The notes under the pieces are model-generated. The model searched no databases and was not told the DNA's origin. It worked only from the letters and a program-made list of their open reading frames with translations. From contig OX442314.1 in assembly GCA_949358305.1 (NCBI GenBank), forward strand, positions 16,733,060 through 16,797,059: a stretch of DNA of 64,000 nucleotides, in the 5' to 3' direction. Shown piece by piece: positions 48,118 to 62,342 of the stretch. The DNA comes from Strigamia acuminata. Its lineage: Eukaryota; Arthropoda; Chilopoda; Geophilomorpha; Linotaeniidae. The stretch's first letter is position 1. Every line of letters begins with the position of its first letter. Made by a program: the position numbers and the translations under genes.

Positions 48118-49354
48118 GGTATGTTTATCTTTTTTTTCTTCTTCCCTATCTTGAACAATTCAAACACTGGAGCGCCGTAAGTTTGAATTTTTGTCGTCTG
48201 CTATTCAAACCCGGAAAACTCGCCTTTTATTTTATCGCACTAAAAAAAAGAAAAAAGATATTTCTAATTTCTAATTGTTGTCTGCCTGACAGTACACACA
48301 AACAACAAAATAGAACTGAAAAAAAGCGAAAAAAAAAAATATTACACAACCCCGTATAATTTATTTATTATTGTTGTTGTTAATATTCTTTTAAAAAAAA
48401 CGCCATTATATAACAGGAAAAAGTTGTTTTTTAATCTATAAGGAAAATATACTTTCTACATAATAAGTATTAATGATTCTTAAGAGAATATCAACTAAAA
48501 CTCCTAAGTAAATGTTAAATCTGACATTTGTAAACAAGGATAATATTTTTATCTTTACTGCTCTATACAAACTAAGACGTATGACGTCATTCTTGACCTC
48601 CTCCAATACATTGCAATAACTGGTGGGATGGATTTGTATTCTTACACAATGTTTTGTAATAAAAATTAATTACAAAATTAAAAAATAAAAAATATCAATA
48701 ATTTGAAATATTAATTTTATTTTAATTACTTAATTTTTATTGTAGAAATAACCTTAAAAAGAAAGATATTTTCTTTAAAAAAAAATCGTCTTGAACACAT
48801 TTCAATCTAGGCCTCAGTTGTTTGGGTGAGTTAAAAATACCTCCCGCATTACGTCACAGGGCATATCTGTTAGTGGTATATCAGAGCAGGATGGGGATGG
48901 GAGCTCATTCGAGCCCGAGGCTTGCATGAGTTCACACTCGGACCCTGCGAGACTGGAGTTGCACAGGACCCAAGTGAGTCACTGGTGAGTTGTGTGGTAC
49001 AAAGTATTAAGTCTCCTCGTCATTATTTGATTCATAATGTTGGGAAAGTTTATCCATGAGTCCATTTCATTTCATACCCAGCCCAGTGTTTGACAGGCAA
49101 TTTTTAGCTCCAAAAAAATGAGGGAAAAGTGGAGTACGTAATTTATTTAAAGTTATTGTGGTTGAATTTAGATCCAGTTGACAGTGCCAAAAAAAACTGA
49201 AGGATTTTTTAATTTTTTTTTCTTTTTTAAATTTTTTTTTTTGGTATTAATTTTGAATTAATTTCTATTTGTAGTAAAAGCGCCTTCGAATGTCCGGTGT
49301 CGAAGTGGAGTGTTGAAGTTCGGCGGTAGAAGATTGGCCTTGCGTCCACTCGTC

Positions 49355-50104
49355 ATGCTTAGCGTGAGTGAAAGTCGTCGTGAAAGCCTTAAGCTGCCTT
49401 TGAGTCGAAGCCTGAGTGAACCAGGACCGACGAATGTAATCGTGGTGACCAGCACTTCAGCTCCGAGCAAGAAATGTAAACTGGAAGAAACCGTGTCGTT
49501 GCCAGCATCGCCCAATTCCGACCCTGCCATCAATTTCCGAAGCGTGATCAAAGCGAGCCGAGTGATGGAAGTGGGCGAACTGTCGAGACGAATCGTGGAG
49601 AACGGACACACGCAGAGCAGATCGTTTTTAATACTAGATTGCCGTCCTTTTCTGGCGTTCAACTGCGGTCACATCGCCGGTTCGATCAACGTGAATTGCA
49701 GCGATCGATTCAACCGGAAGAGATTGCAAGTCGGAAGGGCAACGTTGGCCGATTTGGCTCCCTGCAAAGAGGCAAAGGACCTAATCAGACGTCGAACGTG
49801 TCGTGAGGTCATCGTGTGTGATGACTCCACTGCTGATTTGGACAACCTGCATCAGAATCATCCATTGTTTCTTGTGTTGAGTGCATTGTGTGAAGACCAG
49901 AGGGATGCTGTCGTCCTTAAAGGTGATTGTTTTTGCTATTTCTTTTATCCGACCTCAAGTGTAATAAAATGGTGTAATAAAAGAGCGATTTGAGCCAAAT
50001 TTAGGGTCTGCTCTAAATTTGGGATCATCTTGGATCGCTGCCCTACGCCGTTTAAAACTGATGAATAGTTTTGCATTTTATTTTCAATTAGAGATCATCT
50101 TTTT

Positions 50105-50135
<31 letters not shown>

Positions 50136-53100
50136 TCGATAGTCTGATACGGATGAGATCAATTTTGAGTCATTTTCAGCTGTTTCCAATTCGGCTGACT
50201 CATTTGAAGAACTTTTTACAGTATTTCAGTTTTGACTCATTTACGGCATTCGTTAAAGCAGCAGTTTTCTTCAAAACAAAAAGAAAATTATTTCTATTTT
50301 ATTTTTAATTTTTTTTTTTGATTTTGATTTTTTTTTTGGATTTTAAGGAATGGGTTATTGACCTAATGCCCTACAGCCTTCAGTGAAAATAGTCTGAGAT
50401 GCTTTTTGACCTGACTTTGACCCATTTTTTGGTATTTGGGAAGGACATTTTTGAGAAAAGAACCTCCAAAAATGTTTGCCTTGACTGATTAATACGGTCA
50501 GGGATTGTGGTTTCACAGCTTTATTGCAAGTATCGGGCAATTTGGATGTTGCGGAATAAAGGTCTAATCAAATAACGTATATTGCCTCGATTTAGCGCCC
50601 CAGTAAATGCGCGCTAATTGGATTAATCTGGGCACAAATTTTGGCAGCTAATCTGAAAATGGACAGTATTTTTCCATTGTGTTATGAGATAACCAAATGG
50701 AGTCGTTACTATGTACTATTGAGCCCTGAATGAGTATGGATGTGAAAAAAATGGCTATTTGTGTAAATCCGATCCTGAAATAGCCAACTTTACTTGCTAC
50801 CACCCATTTAAACCTATGACTAGGAGGAAAAGTATTGAGTTTGGAATCTGCTTTAGTGTTTTTGGCACGGGGGATCTAAAAACATTTGTTTTGATGGTGA
50901 ATCATCAGACTGGGCATGCAAAACAAGACTGCAAGAATTTTTGCTTTAAAGTTCATGGGTCTAATACGCTAAACTAGGGGAGGCGAAGAAGAAATCTTTT
51001 CTGAATCATATTCATACCTTTGTTAGACATAAGTCCAAATTTAGCAGATGATCTAAACTGTGAAGGAATGACGATTGTTGAACTTCAAACTTTTTTATGA
51101 GGAATTATTTTATTTTTGTTTGTTTTTTATTGATTAATCGATTTGGATTAAAGAGGTAAAAATAGAAAAATCAGGTCTGGGCTATTTACCGCAGATATTG
51201 CCCATTTAACCCGTTCTAGTCAATCATGGAGTTGGTCTATTCATTGATTCGCCATCTGCTGCCAATCAAATTAGGAAATAATGGCGAATTTAATTTACAA
51301 CCCTTCGTGACTCATCATTATTCACACTTTGTGACGTCACTAAACGACAATGATATTTTGTCAAAAGTGCAAAAGGTAGACAAAGTTGTTCTCTTGAAAA
51401 ATTAGCATTATAATGAAAGGATTTTTTTTTTCTCAACTGGTCGGCAAGGTTATTTATATTTTTATTTATTTATTTATTTATACTTTCTACATCTGATGTC
51501 ATTTTTGAGTGGTGAGTGTTAGATCAAAGGATTTCCTAAAAGTGCAATGAACACGACCGTATAAGTCGAAAGTCGTTTGAGACTGCGTGGAGCCTCGTGT
51601 CATCTAACTTAAAAGACAAATTACCTCTTTAAATAAAAATTATTTTTTTTCTAAAATTATTATTTAATTGATTTATTTTTATTTTTTATTTAAGGTGGGT
51701 GGCGTGAATTCAACAAACACTACGCACATTTATGCGAATCAAATACTGTTCAATCTCCGACGATACTTTGTTGCGATACGATGTCGTGCGACCCGTCACT
51801 AAACGAACCGGACATTGAAAACACACCAGCAACTCGCGTGCTTCCATTTCTCTTCTTGGGCAATGAAAGAGATGCGGCAGATTTGAAGGGGTTGTTGGAT
51901 CTGCGAATTACGTGTATTCTTAATGTAACAGCTCATTTGCCCGGCTATCACGAAGAACAGGGGATCAAGTATAAACGATTACCAGCTTCTGACAGTGGTC
52001 ATCAGAATCTCAAACAGTACTTCGATGAAGCTTTCGAATTTATTGGTAAGTCAACTTTATTTATTTAGTATTAGTAATTTGTTGCAATTCTTTCCATAGA
52101 AAGAGACATTTCATTGACATGTCCAAATTGCACAGCTGCGAGTGCATAGCCGAACATTAATTATGTTTACGCCGCTTGTTTCCGGGTATCCGAAACCGAG
52201 TACATGCACGGGACCAATCCCTATGGGCATCTTGCAGGTTTCAGATACTTTTACAGCGAAATCTAGCAGGGGGAATCCATGCAACTGAGGATATAGCTGG
52301 AATTAACGGTTTCGGTTCCGTCCTTGCACACCTCTCTGCCCTATTTTTCTGTAGCAATGACTCGATTACAGATTTATCGCTGTATTTTTTATTTATTTCT
52401 GTTTCCTCATACACGTTTTTGAAGGTTAATGAATGGGTTTCGCAAGATTGGTTCGGTTGGGAAACCCTTTTTTGGGTTTCTAGTGTGTACTGTATGTGGT
52501 AATATAGTATACAGACCGATAAACAATTAAAACTAATCATTGCAGCTGTTGTCATCCATTCATTTTCCGGCAGATGTTAGTTTCGAAAGTTGCTTTCAAA
52601 CTCCGTCATTATGACGTCAGGTAATTGATGCGGTATAAAAAAAATTCATAGACAACAATTTTAGATTCGGAGAAAGTTTTTTTCTCTCGCTCTCTTTACG
52701 GCCGAGTTGTCTTTTGCTTCGGTTTAGAACAGAGTTCAATGTCCCCTAAAATAAAATAAAAAAAAGTTTACGTTTGATGCAACCGCAGTGAGGTAGCCTT
52801 CCAATCCAAGCGAAGAAATGAATAAATGAAATTTATTTAAATTGATTTTTATATTTCTTTTTTAATTTTTCAATGAGGAAGCTTTTAATTCGAATTGGGA
52901 TTAGTGAATGGTCAGTTGATGAATGGAAGCTGTTGAATGGCAATGACAAGGTTTGTGCTGCTCGAATTTCCGGTGCATTTGTGCGCGGGCTAGAAGAAGG
53001 CTTCGAGTTTGAATGGACCGGAAACAGTAGCAATGATACCGTCGAAAGGCGACCGGTCCAGAAGTGGCAACAGATGGTTATGAAGGGGGAAAGGTGTAGT

Positions 53101-56100
53101 TCGCATGATAAAGCGGTTCCTGAATAGGGGGCTCGGCAAACTAGACTCGGGTCGGCTTTTCAGTTTGCATTTGGCTTTTGTTCTGTGTCCATTGAAAGTT
53201 GCACGCGTACCGCGGAACAAAAGTAATATGACATCATCGCAGATTAGGTGACGTAGTTGTGAATTGTAATTGGCTTGATGGGGGTCTACCGATGAAGGGG
53301 GTGCTGGCTGACTCATACCCACAAAAAAGAAAGCAAAATTTGTTTTGGGTCGAGTCGTGACAGTTGACAATTAGTTGCATTTTGCTTGTTTGTTTGGTTA
53401 TTTCGGAGGTTTCGTGCGGCCGGAAGTGTCCGTCGTTGACCGGAACAGTGGATTTCCTCTTACGATTGGGTGTGGTTAACGCGAGAGGTTCCTCAGCCGT
53501 AAACAAGATTCTTAATTTGTGGAATTAGACACCCATCCTTGTGAGTCAGCCACTTAAGTTGAAAAAGTGAGCTAATAAGATTCTTCGTTTTTAATTTGTC
53601 TCGCTAAAAATTGTTTACAGCAAATTTTAAGTTTGAAAATTTGATTACGGGAAATTTTGTTGCGAGTTGTTTTCGGCTTTATTATTATTTTGAAGTATTA
53701 TTATTATTTATTATTATTATTGGTTTTTATGGAGGCCTAAAATGCACAATTTATCTTATCGTAAGTTGATAAGATGGCGACAAGGTGGCGGCGATATTTT
53801 TTTTTGTTATTTGTGCCATGTAAACAGACCGAGTGCATTATGAGGCAGATTTGATCCATCACCTGTAACACGATGATTCAATCAGTGAGTCACTACACGT
53901 GTGCAACAAGTGAAAAAAAGTTGATAGCAACAAGTCCTCGGTATCCTCCTATCGCGTGTATTTTGATTGATATATTTGAATGTATAAACAATATATTTTG
54001 AAGAAGTAAAAAATGAATTTGGTGATTAAATTTCTGAATATTAATTTCAAGTAGATTACACCGAGTATGCTTTGACCAAACAGTTATCAATAATTCTAAA
54101 TTCGCTTTTATATTCGCACTACGTAATTTCGTGAGTCATGCGCTAATCTCGTCATGCATGACCTTCACAAAGTCGCCATTTTTAATTTTTTGCATGATAA
54201 TTGAGTGCGAAAAAATTAGTAAATCAGTGGGTGTAGTGAGATTGTGAGGGGTGTGCATTGATATCAATGAGATTAGAAACAAGAGTGGGGGTGTTCTCAG
54301 GGCTGATGTTGTGCAATTGGCCAGTTAATGGAGCAGAACTTTTTAATTTATCTTGATTTCCGTTGTGAGAGGTTTTTAGGTCATAGAAATGAGCAAATCT
54401 ATGTTCATGACCTCACATGAATTATAATTCAATCTGGGATTTTTGTCAGGAGATGAAGATAGAATTTTTCTTTATTTTTTTTTATTATTTTTTTTTTTTA
54501 CTAAAGAAAATAAAATAAAAATAAAAATATATAAAAAAAAGCAATAAAAACGGGCGGTAATGAAATAAGTTTGTACTTTTTATGACCTTGACTGGTGGTA
54601 ATCTTATGAAAAGTGAGTCATTCTGTACTGTAAAACCTTCAAATAATAACAAGGAAAATGGTTGAGAGCAAAAAAAAGAAATTGTTTACTTTTGTTCTGA
54701 AAAATGTTGTGTAATTGGCGTTGGATTGTAAAGTGATATTATTGTTGACTACTGATTGGGTTTGGTTATTTTTAGTTTGAGATTTTTCGAAGAACGAAAG
54801 CAAAAAATTGTAAACAAATAATAGTTTTATGTTGATGGTTCGTTAGATTCTGGTATGATGTTGTGGTTTCGAATTGTATGGCTGCTTCCTGTGGGCTGCG
54901 GGTCACCCAGGAATGGTAGAATGAGTCATAGTGAGTATGGCGGACAGATGGTTGCCATGCAACTTATAAAAGAAATGAACAGCTGGCTTTTTTCCAACTT
55001 AGCCCTTCCCTCTACATCAATTTCCATGGTGTGAAGTTTTTATTTACAAATTAACTTTATTTTTGCCTATTAAAATTTAAAAAAAGTGGGCGGATAAATT
55101 GAAATAAATTCCATCAAATATGTGAATGTGTCTGTTGTAACCTTTTGTGGACATGCATGCTAAATAATGGCGTGTTGACTAATCAATAAAGAGGGGAAAA
55201 ACAAACATGTTAAAGTGCAACTAAAATTTTTTTTTGTTTTTACCATAAAAATGTAACAAAAAAATGTAAATTTAGATTTAAAAATTCTATTTAATTGTGA
55301 AATACCTTTTTAACAATTTGTTTTTGGTAGCAAAAAATGCTCCATCTTGATTTCCTGCATGATTCATTCCAGTTTTTTTCCCCAATAATTTTTCAATATC
55401 TTTTTCCTGATTCATAAATATCCCCTTGGTACTAATTTATTTTTTATGAAAAAAATAACCGTCACTAAATGACTAAGGAAATTAATGAAAATAAAAAGGG
55501 GTGCTGGGAGGAGGTATATTATCAACTGGACTTGATTAGGAGGTGAGGGTAACTTTTTTTATTCCCCCAACTCATTTTTTTAAATCCAATATTCGAACCC
55601 CTAACCCATTGGGTATAAATAAAAAGCGCAATAAATATATCGCCGCAGCCAAAGGGGTCGATTTAATACGCCAAAGTTTATTCGCAGAGGTGGAATTTTT
55701 TATTTTTTCATTTGTTTAGGTAACTGGAAATTATTAGGAACCTCAGCAGGGATGTGAACGTACACTTTAACGTGGCTTTGATTTAATCTGTGATGTCAGC
55801 ACCTTCAGACCCATGAGTCAACCTATTCACCATCTGCCCGAGATGAAGTACTGACGTCATTTTATGTACAATAACAGCGAGTGCATGAGAGACATAATAC
55901 TGGCCAATAATGAAGAAGTGGATTAGGGGTTGGTCATCTCGTTGTGTCAATTTGACGACCCTCCCATGCCGTGATCAAAAGCTAGTTTAGCACTAAATGG
56001 CAAAGTTTGTTGCAAACATGGCCGGCAGTCGTTGTTTTTACGGCGCTTTGGGCAAATATTACGTCAAAATGTTAAGAGATGTCGTTAAGTAGGAAGTTGT

Positions 56101-57171
56101 TTGGGCTTTGGGTTAGTTTTATTTGACTTCCGCTCGGTTTGATTCTGATTAGGAAAATGTGTTGAGTGGTTGGCATAGAATTTGGGTAATTTAAAATTAT
56201 AAAAAAAAAATTGTAGGTTTTGTAAATCATGGAAAAAATGTGTAGGAAATCAAATGGATTTAATCTTCCGGGTGACTGGGAACGTTTAAAATGAGGTCAG
56301 AAATGTATTTCTTGCATGAGTTGCTACACTTCCTTGAGTTTTGGAAATGTTTTTCCTAATTGATCAATATCCTACGAAAGGATCATTCCCCTTGAATCAA
56401 AATCGTCGCAAATTTTAGCGGTATTACGTTAAGAAATGTCCGAAATATTGCGTGATGTAAACTTACACGACGGTTAAACGTGGGGAATATTTCCTGCTTA
56501 TTGTGAATTTGTTGCTCACGTAGAAAACAAAAAAACCCGGTAGGAATTCCTGTTGTATGAGTTAGAAAACTCCTGAAAATCGGAAAAATCTTTGACTGCA
56601 TGCGTGTAGTTGCCAGCTTCCTGTTTGTTAGATTCATTTGCGTCTGTTTTGTGTGCATTTTTGAGTTTTAATGACTTCTTTTCGTGTTAGGGTAATGGCT
56701 TTTTGGCCCTTTAGCTCGTGTTCGCGTGCTAATTGCTTAAACCAGGTTGGTTGAATGAGTTTTCTTGGGGTCTTGCAGTTGTCATTAAAGTTGAGATGTG
56801 TTGTTTTGTGTCTGATTTGTGTTGAAACGAATTTTAATGTTTGTTTCAATGTATTTGCAGATGAGGCCCGACGAAATGAAAACAACGTGCTTATACATTG
56901 CCAGGCGGGCATTTCCCGTTCACCCACCATAACCATTGCCTACATCATGAAACACACATTAATGAACATGGTAGACGCGTACCGAATGGTGAAAAACAAA
57001 CGTCCAATCATATCACCTAATTTCAACTTCATGGGCCAATTGTTGGAGTTCGAACAGAATCTTCGCAGCAGCCAAGATGATCCTGAGTGCAAACCTTGTC
57101 GTCAGTGTGTGTGGACAGACTCGAATTCAGTTACTGACTTGTCGCAGTGTGGTAAAACGTGCAGTGTTTGA
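49355..57171 (+). CDS. DUSP10: dual-specificity MAP kinase phosphatase, DUSP10/MKP-5 type
   Basis: Three coding exons, 49355-49922, 51695-52045 and 56861-57171, give 409 residues (human DUSP10 is 482; the N-terminal tail is shorter). The start is the first in-frame ATG after the acceptor at 49274. Residues about 70-195 form a rhodanese-like kinase-docking domain ([20 protein letters not shown]) with the basic stretch [15 protein letters not shown], equivalent to the p38/JNK docking segment of DUSP10. Residues about 228-385 are the phosphatase domain: [20 protein letters not shown] is characteristic of DUSP10, Asp289 in LPASDS is the general acid, and HCQAGISRS holds catalytic Cys320. [18 protein letters not shown] is the usual end of the domain. 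Both introns are phase 1, the second 4.8 kb. Expected role: switching off stress MAP kinases (p38/JNK). The Cys-rich C-terminal tail (CKPCRQC) differs from the human one. Confidence 0.95.
52046..56860. other. large second coding intron of DUSP10
   Basis: A 4.8-kb GT-AG intron. Short open frames occur on both strands (for example 52873-53127), but none has a recognisable domain or splice context. T-rich and A-rich simple tracts are frequent. No nested gene or clear transposon is visible. Confidence 0.5.
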
Positions 57172-58162: not shown

Positions 58163-58168
58163 TTTATT
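58163..58168 (-). terminator. polyadenylation signal of the DEG/ENaC gene
   Basis: AATAAA on the minus strand, 62 bases after the stop codon at 58230-58232; the nearest canonical signal. Confidence 0.6.
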
Positions 58169-58229: not shown

Positions 58230-61200
58230 CTAAAAAGAAAACTTAAGGATCAACACATTGTATCGTGGGTATAATGGTAAGTTGGATGCATACCAGTGAG
58301 ATGCAATGTTAAACACGGAGAGAATCGACAAGCCTAACCCAATTCCCAAAATGCTTCCTATGTCACTGATGAGTGCATGGCCCGTGTATTTTTGGATTTC
58401 CAAAAGATGTTCAATATAATTGGTTAGAAGAAAGTTTGAGACAATGGTTATTACTTTGGTGGGGTGTTCTTCTGTCACGACACTAGACGTGACAATAGTT
58501 TTAGTACAACTCGGTAAACAATGGCACGACTTGTACGCGTCACTTCTCATATAAATGTCAACATATTTGTGCTGCGATTGCAATGATGAACTGAAGTTGG
58601 TACACATTGGAATGTAGATGTCAAAATTAGTCATATAAGGTAAGCTGTAGGTACATGAAAAGAAAGTGCGCTGTAGAACAATATGATTGCTGATTGGTTC
58701 TAAAGAAAATATTTGGATTTTTTTGCCTTGTGTTGGAGAAATTGGTTCTGAAATGGGGCAAGGTGTTCTAAATTTATAAGGCTCTAGCTAGGAATTTTTG
58801 TTACATTGTTTCAACCAATTTGGTCATGGATGACCATTTTAGAAATTCTAAATGCTTAATTTGTGCCTGGAATTTTATTACTTCGAATTCAAACTGCATC
58901 ATTACTGTACATGCTCAAAAATTAAAGAGAGTTAGTGTGTTTTGTTTCTGATTATAAACGTTGAGTGCAGCTAGTGTCTGCTGTTTCTTGAACACATTAA
59001 TTATTTATTGTGTTGACGTGTCCAGGCTAGAATGTACAATTTGAATTTAGCATCAAATTAGGACTACTAGTTTGTGTTCACCAGTATAGAACCATTTTTA
59101 ATAATAGGTTGGTGTCTTTGTCTACTATTTTCCATCATTCCCAGCAGAGAAGAGAGGTTCAACTATTAGGGAAAACTATAGGAAAAGTATCTGTTGGGTA
59201 GTTCCTTTAATTTATAAGAGATACTGATAGTCTGTAAAATCAGTTTAGCATTCAAAAATTGAATTCAGCTAATGTTTACATTTGGTAACCAAAAGATACT
59301 TTTGAGATATATTAAGTTCTTTTAATTTTGAAGCTTGGATGCTCTCACTGGAGCAGATTCCAGGTAACAACAGTTTTATTTATACTTGGCGATACTGTAC
59401 GGAAGCTTACCGACAAGATAATTGTTCCTGTAATTTTTGTTTTAGACATTGTTGAAGGCAATTTAAATGTATCTTTTTATCCGTGCATCTATACCGAGTG
59501 ATATTTAGTTGAGTCATCTGAAAAATTTCCAGATAATGTACAAATTTAAACATTTTCGCGATTCTCGTGCGACTCGGTTACTGCTTTCCGATAAGAAACA
59601 AACACAATCTGACAAATTAAGCGGATACACCACTGTTTGGTTCCACTGCAGCCTCCAATACAGCACTTGAGTTTATTTATTTTCAACATTGAATCAAGAA
59701 GCTTAAAAAAATACCTTTTTTATTCGTATGTATACGATACTTCGGGTGGCTCCCTGCACGTCTGTTGCCGTTGACAAATCTATATTTTCATCAGGTGAAT
59801 TTAAGATGTACTAATAAAGTTAAAAAGATAATTTTAAAATTTTTGCCTCTTCTGGCGCAGATTTTCTTAATTTTACCCAAAACGTATGTTTATCGCAAAA
59901 AAAATACTTTGGAAATGGAAGCAACTGCAATGACAATCCTGTGGTTGCACCTGTATAGTTAACCGGTGTTGTATGTAGTTGAGTACACTTGCCGTATAAC
60001 AGCATTGCCGTTGTTTTGGTTGCATTGAAATCTACAGGTGTTCCTCCTGTATAATGCTAAAATTACAATAATGTGATGAATATGTGTATTATCACTGTGA
60101 CACTTGTTTACTTTAAATGTATCGCTAACGCTGACCGCTGAATGAATAGAAAGATCATTCCAGATACGATCTGCTGGATTGATGTCGTCAATAAGTTGCA
60201 GATGATTAATTTGTTCACATCCCAATACTTTGTTGCCATTAGCTTTACGCTTTAGTTTATGTATACGTGAAGATTCGCCACATATAGTTACTATAGGAAA
60301 CTGGACCTTTGAAAGTCGAAGTATGTCAACTGACGATGTCGTCGGTTCATTCATGTAGTACTTAGTGCGCCAATACAACATGTAGACAGTCAAACCAATT
60401 AGCAAACTGATAGTTATTATTTTTACTGCATGTAAAATGGATTTGTTATTTTGCTGAGATAGTTTTCTTCTAATTTTACCAATCTTTTTTACTAAACGCA
60501 ACTGTCTGGTCGTTCTCCAATATTTTCGTTGTTTACGTATGATTCTCACAATCATAAAACATTCTATTACAGACAGCAATGATAGACCCATCGTAAGGCC
60601 TAAAGTTCCTCCAATTTCCGAAAGCAAAGAGATTATATCAAATGACAAATGTTGAATATAAGCAGTGATTTCTTTATCTCGAAAGTAAAAATTGAAAATC
60701 AGTTCGTGTCCAGCTATACGAGTGCTCTCTATAGTTGGTTCATAAGAATATTCAACACATTTTTTTATGCATCCACAATCACGTTCTGGGTATTTTTTTG
60801 TGTGAAAAATTGACAGTAACTTTAAGAACAATTCGGAAATCTCGGGATTACTGAGCGTGCACTCGGGTAAATTAGATGTAGCGAATGGAAACCTTTTAAA
60901 TATTCACAGATATTAAAGAAGAAGTATGTAACTAATGATGCACAATTGTTTTAAAATAATACTTACTTGCAATTAAGTTTTCTATGCATCCTGTCAATAC
61001 AATCTTTGAAACATTTTGCATGGTCTTTAAAACTAACACAGTGTGACTTTGGAGTATCAATTAATGAGTACTAAAGTAGTAAGTTGCAAAGGAAAATATA
61101 TTTTCAGGATAAAATGCATTAAAAACGAAAAAAACAACTTAATTTACACAGCTTACTTTTAAATAAGTAAAGGTAACTCTTTTTTCAGAGCCTGAAGCCA

Positions 61201-61666
61201 CCGGATATGAAATTTTGGCAATAGTTGCATCTCCGATTTGTTTTACATAAATCTATAAAATTATGTTGGTTCAAAATGTTAAGATGTTAAACCTAATTAT
61301 GAGAACCCACCACATAGCTGTGTTCATTACAGAAATCTTTATTCTTCTTTGCATACATTACTTCAAATGAACTGCCTTGATAAGACGGCATCCAAGGATT
61401 AACTGTATGCAAGTTTAGAAATAAATTTAATGCACAATACCAAAACGACACTCGCGTGTTTAATACCAAAGCGAAATCGTGTTGTGATTCCCAAGTCAGC
61501 AGCTAGGACTTCATCTTGAACTATTTTCAAATGTGAAATTTTCTGTTTCTGTAAGAATAAAAAGAAACGTAAATTATAACTCAAACTGGGCTATTGTACA
61601 TACGTATACAGGGGCGGATCTAGCTTTTCGGGGGCCCTGGGCTCGAGGTCTTTTCGGGGCCCCTTT

Positions 61667-61706
<40 letters not shown>

Positions 61707-62342
61707 TACATTGTCTTGTTTCTTGGGGCCCTCCTAGGATTTGGAGGCCCTGGGCTCAAGCCCTAGTAGCCCTTATGTAGATCCGCCCCTGTACGTATAT
61801 ACAATATTCTGCAAGCTTACTTTTCTAACTTTAAATGATTGCATTGCTGTTGTAATGTTAGTTGCGTTCCATATTTCCTTTAAAGTTACATCTGGAGGAA
61901 TGGTTTTTGCCTTCATTAAACTAAGTAGTGGGTTAACGCAGTTAATATTAACCAAATCTGCAGGCCGGACATCTAAATTTGACCTGTTCCATAAGTCAAA
62001 CATTGCATCTGTGTCGTATGCCGCAATGTCAAATGCTGGATGATCAAACTCTTCTGATGTTTGAATAACATCGACAACTGTATGGTAATCGAAGTAATAA
62101 CTTGTTCTGACGAACGTTTGATATCCAAAAAATAAAATACAAACGCACAATGTAGCAACGAAAATACATTTTAAAGGAACAGGAACTTTCTTCTGAGTGA
62201 GTAAACTCAATCCAGAAATAGGAAAATCTGCCAAACTTATTTCTTTTTGAGATTGAGTTACAATTCGTCGGATTAAGGCTTTCGAACGAAGTTTTTTGTC
62301 TAAACAGTTTGGTTTAAAAGGTTGAAATACATATTTCTGCAT
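58230..62342 (-). CDS. two-module (tandem-fused) DEG/ENaC cation channel
   Basis: Ten GT-AG exons give 824 residues: 62342-61821, 61548-61467, 61402-61311, 61252-61157, 61070-60967, 60892-60112, 60056-59877, 59810-59715, 59517-59411, 58644-58230. Module 1: cytosolic N-terminus, TM1 about 59-79, compact Cys-containing ectodomain, CGCIKKC, TM2 with EIGGTLGLTMGLSLLSVIE (about 391-409). A basic linker (about 415-452) leads into module 2: TM1 about 455-473, canonical FPIVTIC, YGKC...GLSL segment, CHCLPSC, TM2 with DIGSILGIGLGLSILSV (780-797). Exon 60892-60112 alone spans TM2, linker and second TM1, so the fusion does not rest on a splice guess. GLS replaces the GAS selectivity motif in both modules, and the N-terminal HG gating motif is SG and HA. 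The family forms amiloride-sensitive or ligand/proton-gated Na+ channels; the ligand here is unknown. The first Met is a choice: the frame stays open somewhat upstream. Confidence 0.9.
61609..61791. mobile_element. hAT MITE in DEG/ENaC intron 1, 8-bp duplication TACGTATA
   Basis: A 183-bp element with ends CAGGGGCGGATCTA and TAGATCCGCCCCTG, flanked by TACGTATA at 61601-61608 and 61792-61799. The arms also share GGGCCCTGGGCTC-like tracts. A poly-T run of about 35 bases (61670-61704) sits in the middle. Confidence 0.95.

What the first reader, a model, noticed from the sequence alone, without database searches (positions are those of the whole stretch)
58230..62342. One gene encodes two DEG/ENaC channel modules in a single polypeptide
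Seen: ten exons join in frame on the minus strand to 824 codons containing TM1-ectodomain-TM2 twice. Exon 60892-60112 (781 bp, open throughout) runs from the end of ectodomain 1 through TM2, a basic linker and the next TM1 into FPIVTIC of module 2. Known: DEG/ENaC/ASIC subunits are two-helix proteins that assemble as trimers. Inference: a covalent tandem subunit would force adjacency of unlike modules and cannot fill a trimer with whole subunits, so it may pair with a single-module partner, leave a module out of the pore, or form a six-module assembly. I know of no described natural DEG/ENaC concatemer, but could not search.
Basis: partly seen in the sequence, partly recalled or inferred. Interest (0 to 1): 0.92.

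Follow-up and report, generated by a model that had tools for sequence, protein, structure and literature searches.

The report
Two sodium-channel subunits fused in one
A centipede gene encodes one protein holding two complete sodium-channel subunits end to end, and the same genome holds hundreds of copies of the exon that joins them, although these channels are usually built from three separate single subunits.

Summary
Exon 60892-60112 runs open through the first module's TM2, a 39-residue basic linker and the next TM1. The window matches chromosome 1 of the centipede Strigamia acuminata.

It is no oddity. Two searches of that genome gave 243 distinct stop-free copies of the fused TM2-linker-TM1 exon, a lower bound. 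In the best-sampled clade 66 of 85 lie between a first and a last exon and none neighbours another, so these genes carry two modules. A modelled paralogue has intron phases 0,1,0,0,2 in each module. In a tree of 50 TM2 exons the 22 module-1 exons form one clade and the 5 module-2 exons another, which fits one fusion followed by mass duplication. Linkers are under purifying selection (pooled dN/dS 0.47). At least two single-module genes coexist.

Most likely each chain is a pre-linked unlike pair filling two of three pore positions, with a single-module subunit or a second chain supplying the third. Assembly, expression and stimulus are untested. Eight open-access paper searches listed no natural DEG/ENaC concatemer.

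The parts
61821..62342 (-). exon 1: start codon, N-terminus, TM1 of module 1, start of ectodomain 1
   Evidence: GT donor, phase 0; hydrophobic segment aa 53-71; S-G at aa 43-44 where an H-G motif would stand
61467..61548 (-). exon 2 (ectodomain 1)
   Evidence: exit phase 1
61311..61402 (-). exon 3 (ectodomain 1)
   Evidence: exit phase 0
61157..61252 (-). exon 4 (ectodomain 1), 96 nt, counterpart of exon 8
60967..61070 (-). exon 5 (ectodomain 1), exit phase 2, counterpart of exon 9
60112..60892 (-). exon 6, the fused exon: end of ectodomain 1, TM2 of module 1 (G-L-S filter), basic linker, TM1 of module 2, FPIVTIC
   Evidence: at least 243 stop-free paralogous places in the genome, itself included
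60430..60546 (-). 39-residue linker between TM2 of module 1 and TM1 of module 2 (aa 415-453; 15 K/R, 0 D/E)
   Evidence: pooled linker dN/dS 0.47 among 19 fused exons
59877..60056 (-). exon 7 (ectodomain 2), counterpart of exons 2+3; the phase-1 intron seen here in two modelled paralogues is absent
59715..59810 (-). exon 8 (ectodomain 2), 96 nt
59411..59517 (-). exon 9 (ectodomain 2), exit phase 2
58230..58644 (-). exon 10: end of ectodomain 2, TM2 of module 2 (G-L-S filter), stop
58163..58168 (-). AATAAA, about 60 nt after the stop codon; no AATAAA or ATTAAA on this strand inside exon 6

Best explanation
This is a member of a large centipede family of natural two-module DEG/ENaC subunits. Shown by sequence: two ASC modules in one open spliced frame; one exon carrying the end of module 1 and the start of module 2 without a stop; the same exon at hundreds of places; the same intron phases in both modules of paralogues; module 1s and module 2s as separate clades in a sampled tree. 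Inferred: two neighbouring paralogous single-module genes were joined in frame, last exon of one to first exon of the next, once, before the family expanded. Inferred: the protein crosses the membrane four times with both ectodomains outside and the basic linker in the cytosol, and works as a pre-linked unlike pair filling two neighbouring positions of a three-fold pore. The third position is supplied by a separate single-module subunit of the same genome, or by one module of a second tandem chain. The linkage fixes order, so that many variable tandem chains can be combined with few partners, as a receptor repertoire would need. Chance that it is a real translated tandem: about 0.95; that two-plus-one assembly is right: about 0.4 (lowered from 0.45 on checking, because a published claim of tetrameric ASIC1a had been left out of the rivals).
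For: Exact ten-exon model, two ASC domains. 243 stop-free fused exons. In one clade 66 of 85 fused exons lie between a first and a last exon, 0 next to another of the 85. Modelled paralogue of 812 aa with phases 0,1,0,0,2 in each module (splice sites chosen by score, no transcripts). Two introns fall in the same alignment column and phase in both modules of the window gene, a third within one column. Tree of 50 TM2 exons: 22 module-1 exons one clade (96/96), 5 module-2 exons one clade (100/98). Pooled dN/dS 0.40 overall, TM2 0.18, linker 0.47. G-x-S kept in both modules of the window gene and of two modelled paralogues. Two single-module genes, by exon content, on C11. Engineered ASIC trimers joined by 19-residue linkers form functional channels (PMC10329638, passages).
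Against: No transcript or protein evidence. No multimer prediction was possible; the model of exon 6 alone had mean pLDDT 37 and was set aside. The closest paralogue pairs have dN/dS near 1 (L034/L041 1.02, L034/L048 0.97), so young copies evolve under relaxed or diversifying selection. Module 1 of the window gene lacks FPxVTxC, so it may not fold or gate like a usual subunit. No partner has been identified. One study reports mainly tetrameric ASIC1a at the cell surface (PMC4529235, passages), against the trimer premise. Whether modules 1 and 2 are each other's closest kin is open (p-AU 0.45). Searches of 5.8 billion proteins with this protein found no relative; a control shows the collection holds animals, so these negatives say little either way.
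Confidence: 0.57

Rival explanations
1. Three tandem chains assemble into six modules: a module-1 trimer and a module-2 trimer side by side, held by three linkers, a double-barrelled channel.
For: Modules 1 and 2 are separate clades in the sampled tree and keep G-x-S where examined, so each could form a like-with-like pore; the closest solved relatives, BRTNaC1 and PDPNaC1, have three chains per entry, and the PDPNaC1 abstract reports a homotrimer (listing).
Against: The linker is short: 36 residues here and 32-34 in 18 paralogues by the same landmarks. Whether it can bridge two pores was not modelled. No known DEG/ENaC channel does this (recalled).
Confidence: 0.2
2. Two tandem chains share one trimeric pore and one module is left out, or module 1 has become a non-pore regulatory part.
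For: Module 1 of the window gene has lost FPxVTxC; the aligned paralogues show no clear x-G motif before the TM1 of module 2.
Against: TM2 of module 1, the pore helix, is the most constrained part measured (dN/dS 0.18), and G-L-S is kept in 18 of 19 aligned fused exons (L047 has G-L-L).
Confidence: 0.17
3. Two tandem chains complete a four-module pore, as two-pore-domain potassium channels do.
For: Two chains of two would fit evenly; one study of ASIC1a concatemers and cross-linking reports a predominant tetramer at the cell surface (PMC4529235, passages).
Against: Chicken ASIC1 and ENaC structures are trimers (PMC10148893, passages) and the closest solved relatives have three chains per entry.
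Confidence: 0.1
4. Two independent neighbouring genes share an exon; the fused reading is never translated as one chain.
For: In ten of 18 paralogous linkers an in-frame Met occurs, so internal starts are conceivable there.
Against: No stop and no in-frame Met in the window linker, no AATAAA/ATTAAA in exon 6; 143 of 147 matches stop-free, against 14% of random 34-codon stretches of the window being open; linker dN/dS 0.47.
Confidence: 0.04
5. Misassembly or a pseudogene.
For: 4 of 147 matches and several contain stops, so some copies are decayed.
Against: The same architecture at 243 or more places on several chromosomes, with intact GT-AG splice sites in the modelled window gene and gene B.
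Confidence: 0.01

Closest known systems
BRTNaC1 (broad-range thermal receptor 1, centipede; PDB 8ymr and others)
   Same: Best solved match to both modules (module 2 E 1.8e-15, module 1 3.6e-14); compact DEG/ENaC chain of 431 residues, alike in the late cysteine region and TM2
   Different: One module per chain; has the cysteine of the VTxC motif that module 1 of the window gene has lost
PDPNaC1 (centipede antennal proton-dependent sodium channel; PDB 9jf7; PMC12714832)
   Same: Second-best solved match; compact 421-residue subunit
   Different: Single module, homotrimer (abstract, listing); gene of nine exons (passage)
ASIC, ENaC, FaNaC and pickpocket channels
   Same: ASC domain, two helices per module, CxCxxxC before TM2, G-x-S filter (details of these families partly recalled)
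   Different: Single module per chain; assemble from separate chains; H-G motif highly conserved (PMC10148893, passages)
Engineered ASIC concatemers (PMC8871370, PMC10329638, PMC4899722, PMC4529235; passages read)
   Same: C-terminus of one subunit joined to the N-terminus of the next
   Different: Man-made, with three or four subunits in the constructs described in the passages; here two unlike modules, natural, in a large gene family
Two-pore-domain potassium channels (recalled, no call)
   Same: Two pore modules of a known channel type in one chain
   Different: Two such chains complete a four-fold pore exactly; two modules do not divide a three-fold pore evenly

Membership tests
DEG/ENaC superfamily | ASC domain (PF00858) over the curated cut-off | tested here: met
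   Module 1 64.2 bits, module 2 78.3 bits, cut-off 23.6; the TM1-side half of module 1 alone only 14 bits
DEG/ENaC superfamily | Two membrane helices flanking a large ectodomain, per module | tested here: met
   Hydropathy: residues 53-71, 396-414, 450-468, 782-800
DEG/ENaC superfamily | Conserved cysteine series ending CxCxxxC before TM2 | tested here: met
   Cys 275,284,288,298,310,338,340,344 and 662,671,675,686,701,727,729,733; the ASIC disulfide pairing is recalled
DEG/ENaC superfamily | G-x-S selectivity filter in TM2 | tested here: met
   G-L-S in both modules
DEG/ENaC superfamily | FPxVTxC after TM1 (common, not universal; recalled) | tested here: inconclusive
   Module 2 FPIVTIC; module 1 HPAFDIAA
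DEG/ENaC superfamily | H-G motif before TM1 (highly conserved, not universal) | tested here: not met
   Module 1 S-G; module 2 I-G at a plausible place in the window gene, nothing clear in the aligned paralogues; the two single-module genes of L054 read P-G. I do not treat it as defining; membership rests on the ASC domain
DEG/ENaC superfamily | Assembly as a trimer and sodium conductance | not testable with these tools
   No multimer prediction or recording available
Single-module DEG/ENaC subunit | One ASC domain per chain, stop shortly after TM2 | tested here: not met
   Of 32 TM2 exons listed, 28 stop 19-32 residues after the motif; the 4 fused ones run 166-208 residues further. Exon 6 of the window is of the fused kind

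The most novel reading that the evidence does not exclude
A centipede lineage turned a three-part channel into a two-part one: hundreds of tandem chains each fill two thirds of a pore and share a small set of single-module partners, a receptor repertoire in which pore order is written into the gene; or, more radically, the chains build four-module or six-module double-pore channels.
Probability: 0.35. Interest if true: 0.95.

Novelty: new variant of a known kind. Interest (0 to 1): 0.88.

Why it matters
The make-up of heteromeric DEG/ENaC channels has been studied with engineered concatemers. Here the linkage seems to have been made by evolution, kept, and multiplied to at least 243 stop-free copies of the fused exon in one animal. 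It offers a natural test of how two linked modules serve a pore thought to be three-fold, whether the order of unlike subunits matters, and how a channel family becomes a receptor repertoire. It may also bear on a remark in print: the Strigamia maritima genome paper lists sodium transport among functions enriched in genes duplicated in the myriapod lineage (passage), while ENaC, pickpocket, degenerin and sodium channel do not occur in its main text.

Tried and rejected
Chance open frame: rejected. Two genes merged by over-joining: rejected for lack of stop, in-frame Met in the linker or polyadenylation signal in exon 6, and because the fused exon recurs. Three or more modules per gene: looked for in the main clade; no two of the 85 fused exons are neighbours. 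The 85 leave out 58 of the 143 rows (partial, broken or weaker ones, many on other contigs). Going through the partial and broken C1 and C8 rows by eye, two places show two fused pieces in a row (C1:7297393/7309999 and C1:5518220/5511581), each with a piece that is broken by stops. Not tested in the C6, C9, C11 and other clades. First attempts at the gene model failed on wrong splice choices; one search was in the wrong frame. Protein searches with the tandem protein gave nothing (7997 candidates; 68 candidates); a control with a neighbouring phosphatase gave 1276 hits, those named being animals, so those negatives mean low sensitivity. Viral contigs and genome contigs gave no relative of exon 6. 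AlphaFold on exon 6 alone was meaningless. The TM1-side half of module 1 alone has a weak ASC match and no DEG/ENaC match in the PDB; a TraD_N match (below cut-off) and channelrhodopsin matches (E 0.08 to 0.4) are taken as chance.

Long result lists were seen only in part (15 to 30 titles shown). The library is open-access PMC only. Supplements could not be read.
Full report
What is there. All nine introns are GT-AG and the only stop is the last codon. Pfam ASC matches each half above its cut-off. Hydrophobic segments stand where two TM1/TM2 pairs should be. Exon 6 (60892-60112) is open throughout in its coding frame and has 23 and 22 stops in the other two. Between TM2 of module 1 and TM1 of module 2 lie 39 residues with 15 K/R and no D/E, no stop and no Met.

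Where it is. The held genome has 237,517,015 bases in 157 contigs; the window's contig is 66,985,994 bases long and contig C11 is 9,836,499. The genome note for the centipede Strigamia acuminata gives a longest scaffold of 66,985,994 bp, an N90 of 9,836,499 bp and 237,534,282 bp in 158 scaffolds (PMC10556566, passages). The small difference in total is not explained here. The window therefore lies on chromosome 1 of that species. The best solved relatives of both modules are centipede channels too, BRTNaC1 and then PDPNaC1.

The two modules compared. They are 24% identical. In their alignment two introns fall at the same column and phase (column 273 phase 0, column 308 phase 2) and a third within one column (240/241, phase 0). 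In a simulation with randomly placed introns, two or more exact coincidences had probability 0.00013. So both halves descend from one kind of gene. Eight late cysteines and the G-L-S filter are kept in both. Module 1 has lost the FPxVTxC motif that module 2 keeps, and also lacks a cysteine aligned with C583 of module 2; in BRTNaC1 cysteines align with both positions. If these two form a disulfide, as I recall for ASIC1, the pair was lost together.

A family of fused exons. A search of the genome with exon 6 scored 147 matches (of 1562 first-look candidates). 143 are stop-free, and apart from the window itself they are 24-35% identical. A second search with a distant member on C6 scored 142, of which I kept 128 after dropping 14 that had stops or were partial. 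The union is 243 distinct stop-free places, on C1, C3, C4, C6, C8, C9, C11, C30 and C32. This is a lower bound, since each search scored only about 150 candidates. Some entries are near-identical copies, and the C32 entry has the same score as one on C1 and may be an alternative haplotype. For comparison, 14% of random 34-codon stretches of the window are open.

Two modules, not three. I compared positions of 85 fused exons (the 83 strongest rows, two of them with a stop, plus two weaker), 101 of the 150 first-exon matches and 102 of the 150 last-exon matches. Within 15 kb on the same strand, 66 of 85 have a first exon directly upstream and a last exon directly downstream. The others: 9 first exon only, 5 last exon only, 2 between two first exons, 1 with nothing near, 1 followed by a first exon, 1 between two last exons. 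None of the 85 neighbours another. Among partial and broken rows left out, two places show two fused pieces in a row, each with a piece broken by stops (by eye). Of 32 TM2 exons listed, 28 stop 19-32 residues after the motif and 4 run on for 166-208; 24 of the 30 Pfam loci gave the motif at all.

Full paralogues. On C1:15945001-15957000 lie two sister genes. Gene B gives 812 aa in 11 exons, with phases 0,1,0,0,2 for module 1 and 0,1,0,0,2 for module 2 and the fused exon between them (splice sites chosen by score, no transcripts). Gene A gives the same phases, but its third exon was probably cut short by the automatic choice (790 aa). The window gene differs in lacking the phase-1 intron of module 2. 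On C11 two genes look single-module by exon content: a TM1 exon, then a TM2 exon with its own stop, then the next TM1 exon (full models not built). One of them has the same phase-2 intron before its TM2 exon. The fusion thus looks like an in-frame joining of the last exon of one gene to the first exon of the next.

Single origin. In a tree of 50 TM2 exons (53 collected, 3 duplicates dropped) the 22 module-1 exons form one side of a branch (96/96) and the 5 module-2 exons another (100/98). The other 23 last exons lie outside; apart from those of the two C11 genes they were not assigned to single-module or tandem genes. Module 1 plus module 2 as one clade is neither shown nor rejected (p-AU 0.45). 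The window rows have long branches, so their places are less sure. Only a small part of the family was sampled.

Selection. Among 19 fused exons (L038 dropped for an internal stop), 93 of 171 pairs have dS under 1. Pooled dN/dS is 0.40 overall, 0.18 in TM2, 0.47 in the linker, 0.44 in TM1, 0.48 in the ectodomain tail and 0.38 after TM1. Pairs are not independent. The linker is constrained much like the other coding parts. The closest pairs have values up to 1.02, so young copies evolve under relaxed or diversifying selection, as receptor families often do (inference).

How it may work. ASIC and ENaC structures are trimers (PMC10148893, passages), though one study reports mainly tetrameric ASIC1a at the cell surface (PMC4529235, passages). 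In a trimer two linked modules leave one place open. Engineered ASIC trimers joined C-terminus to N-terminus with 19-residue linkers are functional (PMC10329638, passages), so the polarity of the natural linkage and its linker length look compatible with neighbouring places in one pore; this was not modelled. Both modules keep the filter where examined, and module 1's pore helix is the most constrained part measured. The simplest reading is two places by the tandem and one by a single-module subunit, of which at least two are in the genome. Four-module, six-module and left-over-module assemblies are not excluded. What the channels sense is unknown; the solved relatives are described as heat-activated and proton-gated (titles and abstracts).

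Novelty. Eight searches of open-access papers bearing on the question (listed in Tried and rejected) listed engineered concatemers and no natural one. In the Strigamia maritima genome paper sodium transport is among the functions enriched in myriapod-lineage duplicates (passage), with no mention of ENaC, pickpocket, degenerin or sodium channel in the main text. The millipede genome paper has none of these terms either. Supplements were not read. Databases of domain architecture could not be searched, and predicted proteins with two ASC domains may already be listed there. The kind of channel is known; the architecture, as a conserved and hugely multiplied family, appears undescribed.

Noticed in passing
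window 61609-61791: A 183-bp element in intron 1 with perfect terminal inverted repeats (CAGGGGCGGATCTA) and an 8-bp flanking duplication TACGTATA, like a short non-autonomous hAT transposon (family name recalled).
   Followed up: partly
window 5810-39478, plus strand: Five open frames matching haem-NO-binding, HNOBA or guanylate cyclase domains: probably an array of soluble guanylate cyclase genes.
   Followed up: partly
window 49262-57171, plus strand: Exons of a dual-specificity phosphatase 10-like gene (rhodanese and DSPc domains; one DSPc match below cut-off), up to 76% identical to proteins in the large collection.
   Followed up: partly
G000 C4:3023090, 3036455, 3049804; C6:2863751 and 2938076 with C3:11014293: Fused exons with identical scores within C4, and across C6 and C3: probably very recent copies, one set between chromosomes.
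   Followed up: no
L054 (C11:5265001-5271000), about 1690-2600: A repeat array open in all three plus-strand frames, coding repeats like FSGPKIHFPDRKFIFRTEN, between the TM1 and TM2 exons of the first single-module gene.
   Followed up: no
L034, L041, L048 (C1, 6.0-6.7 Mb): Closest paralogues have dN/dS of 0.81-1.02 in the fused exon, which would fit diversifying or relaxed evolution of a receptor repertoire.
   Followed up: partly
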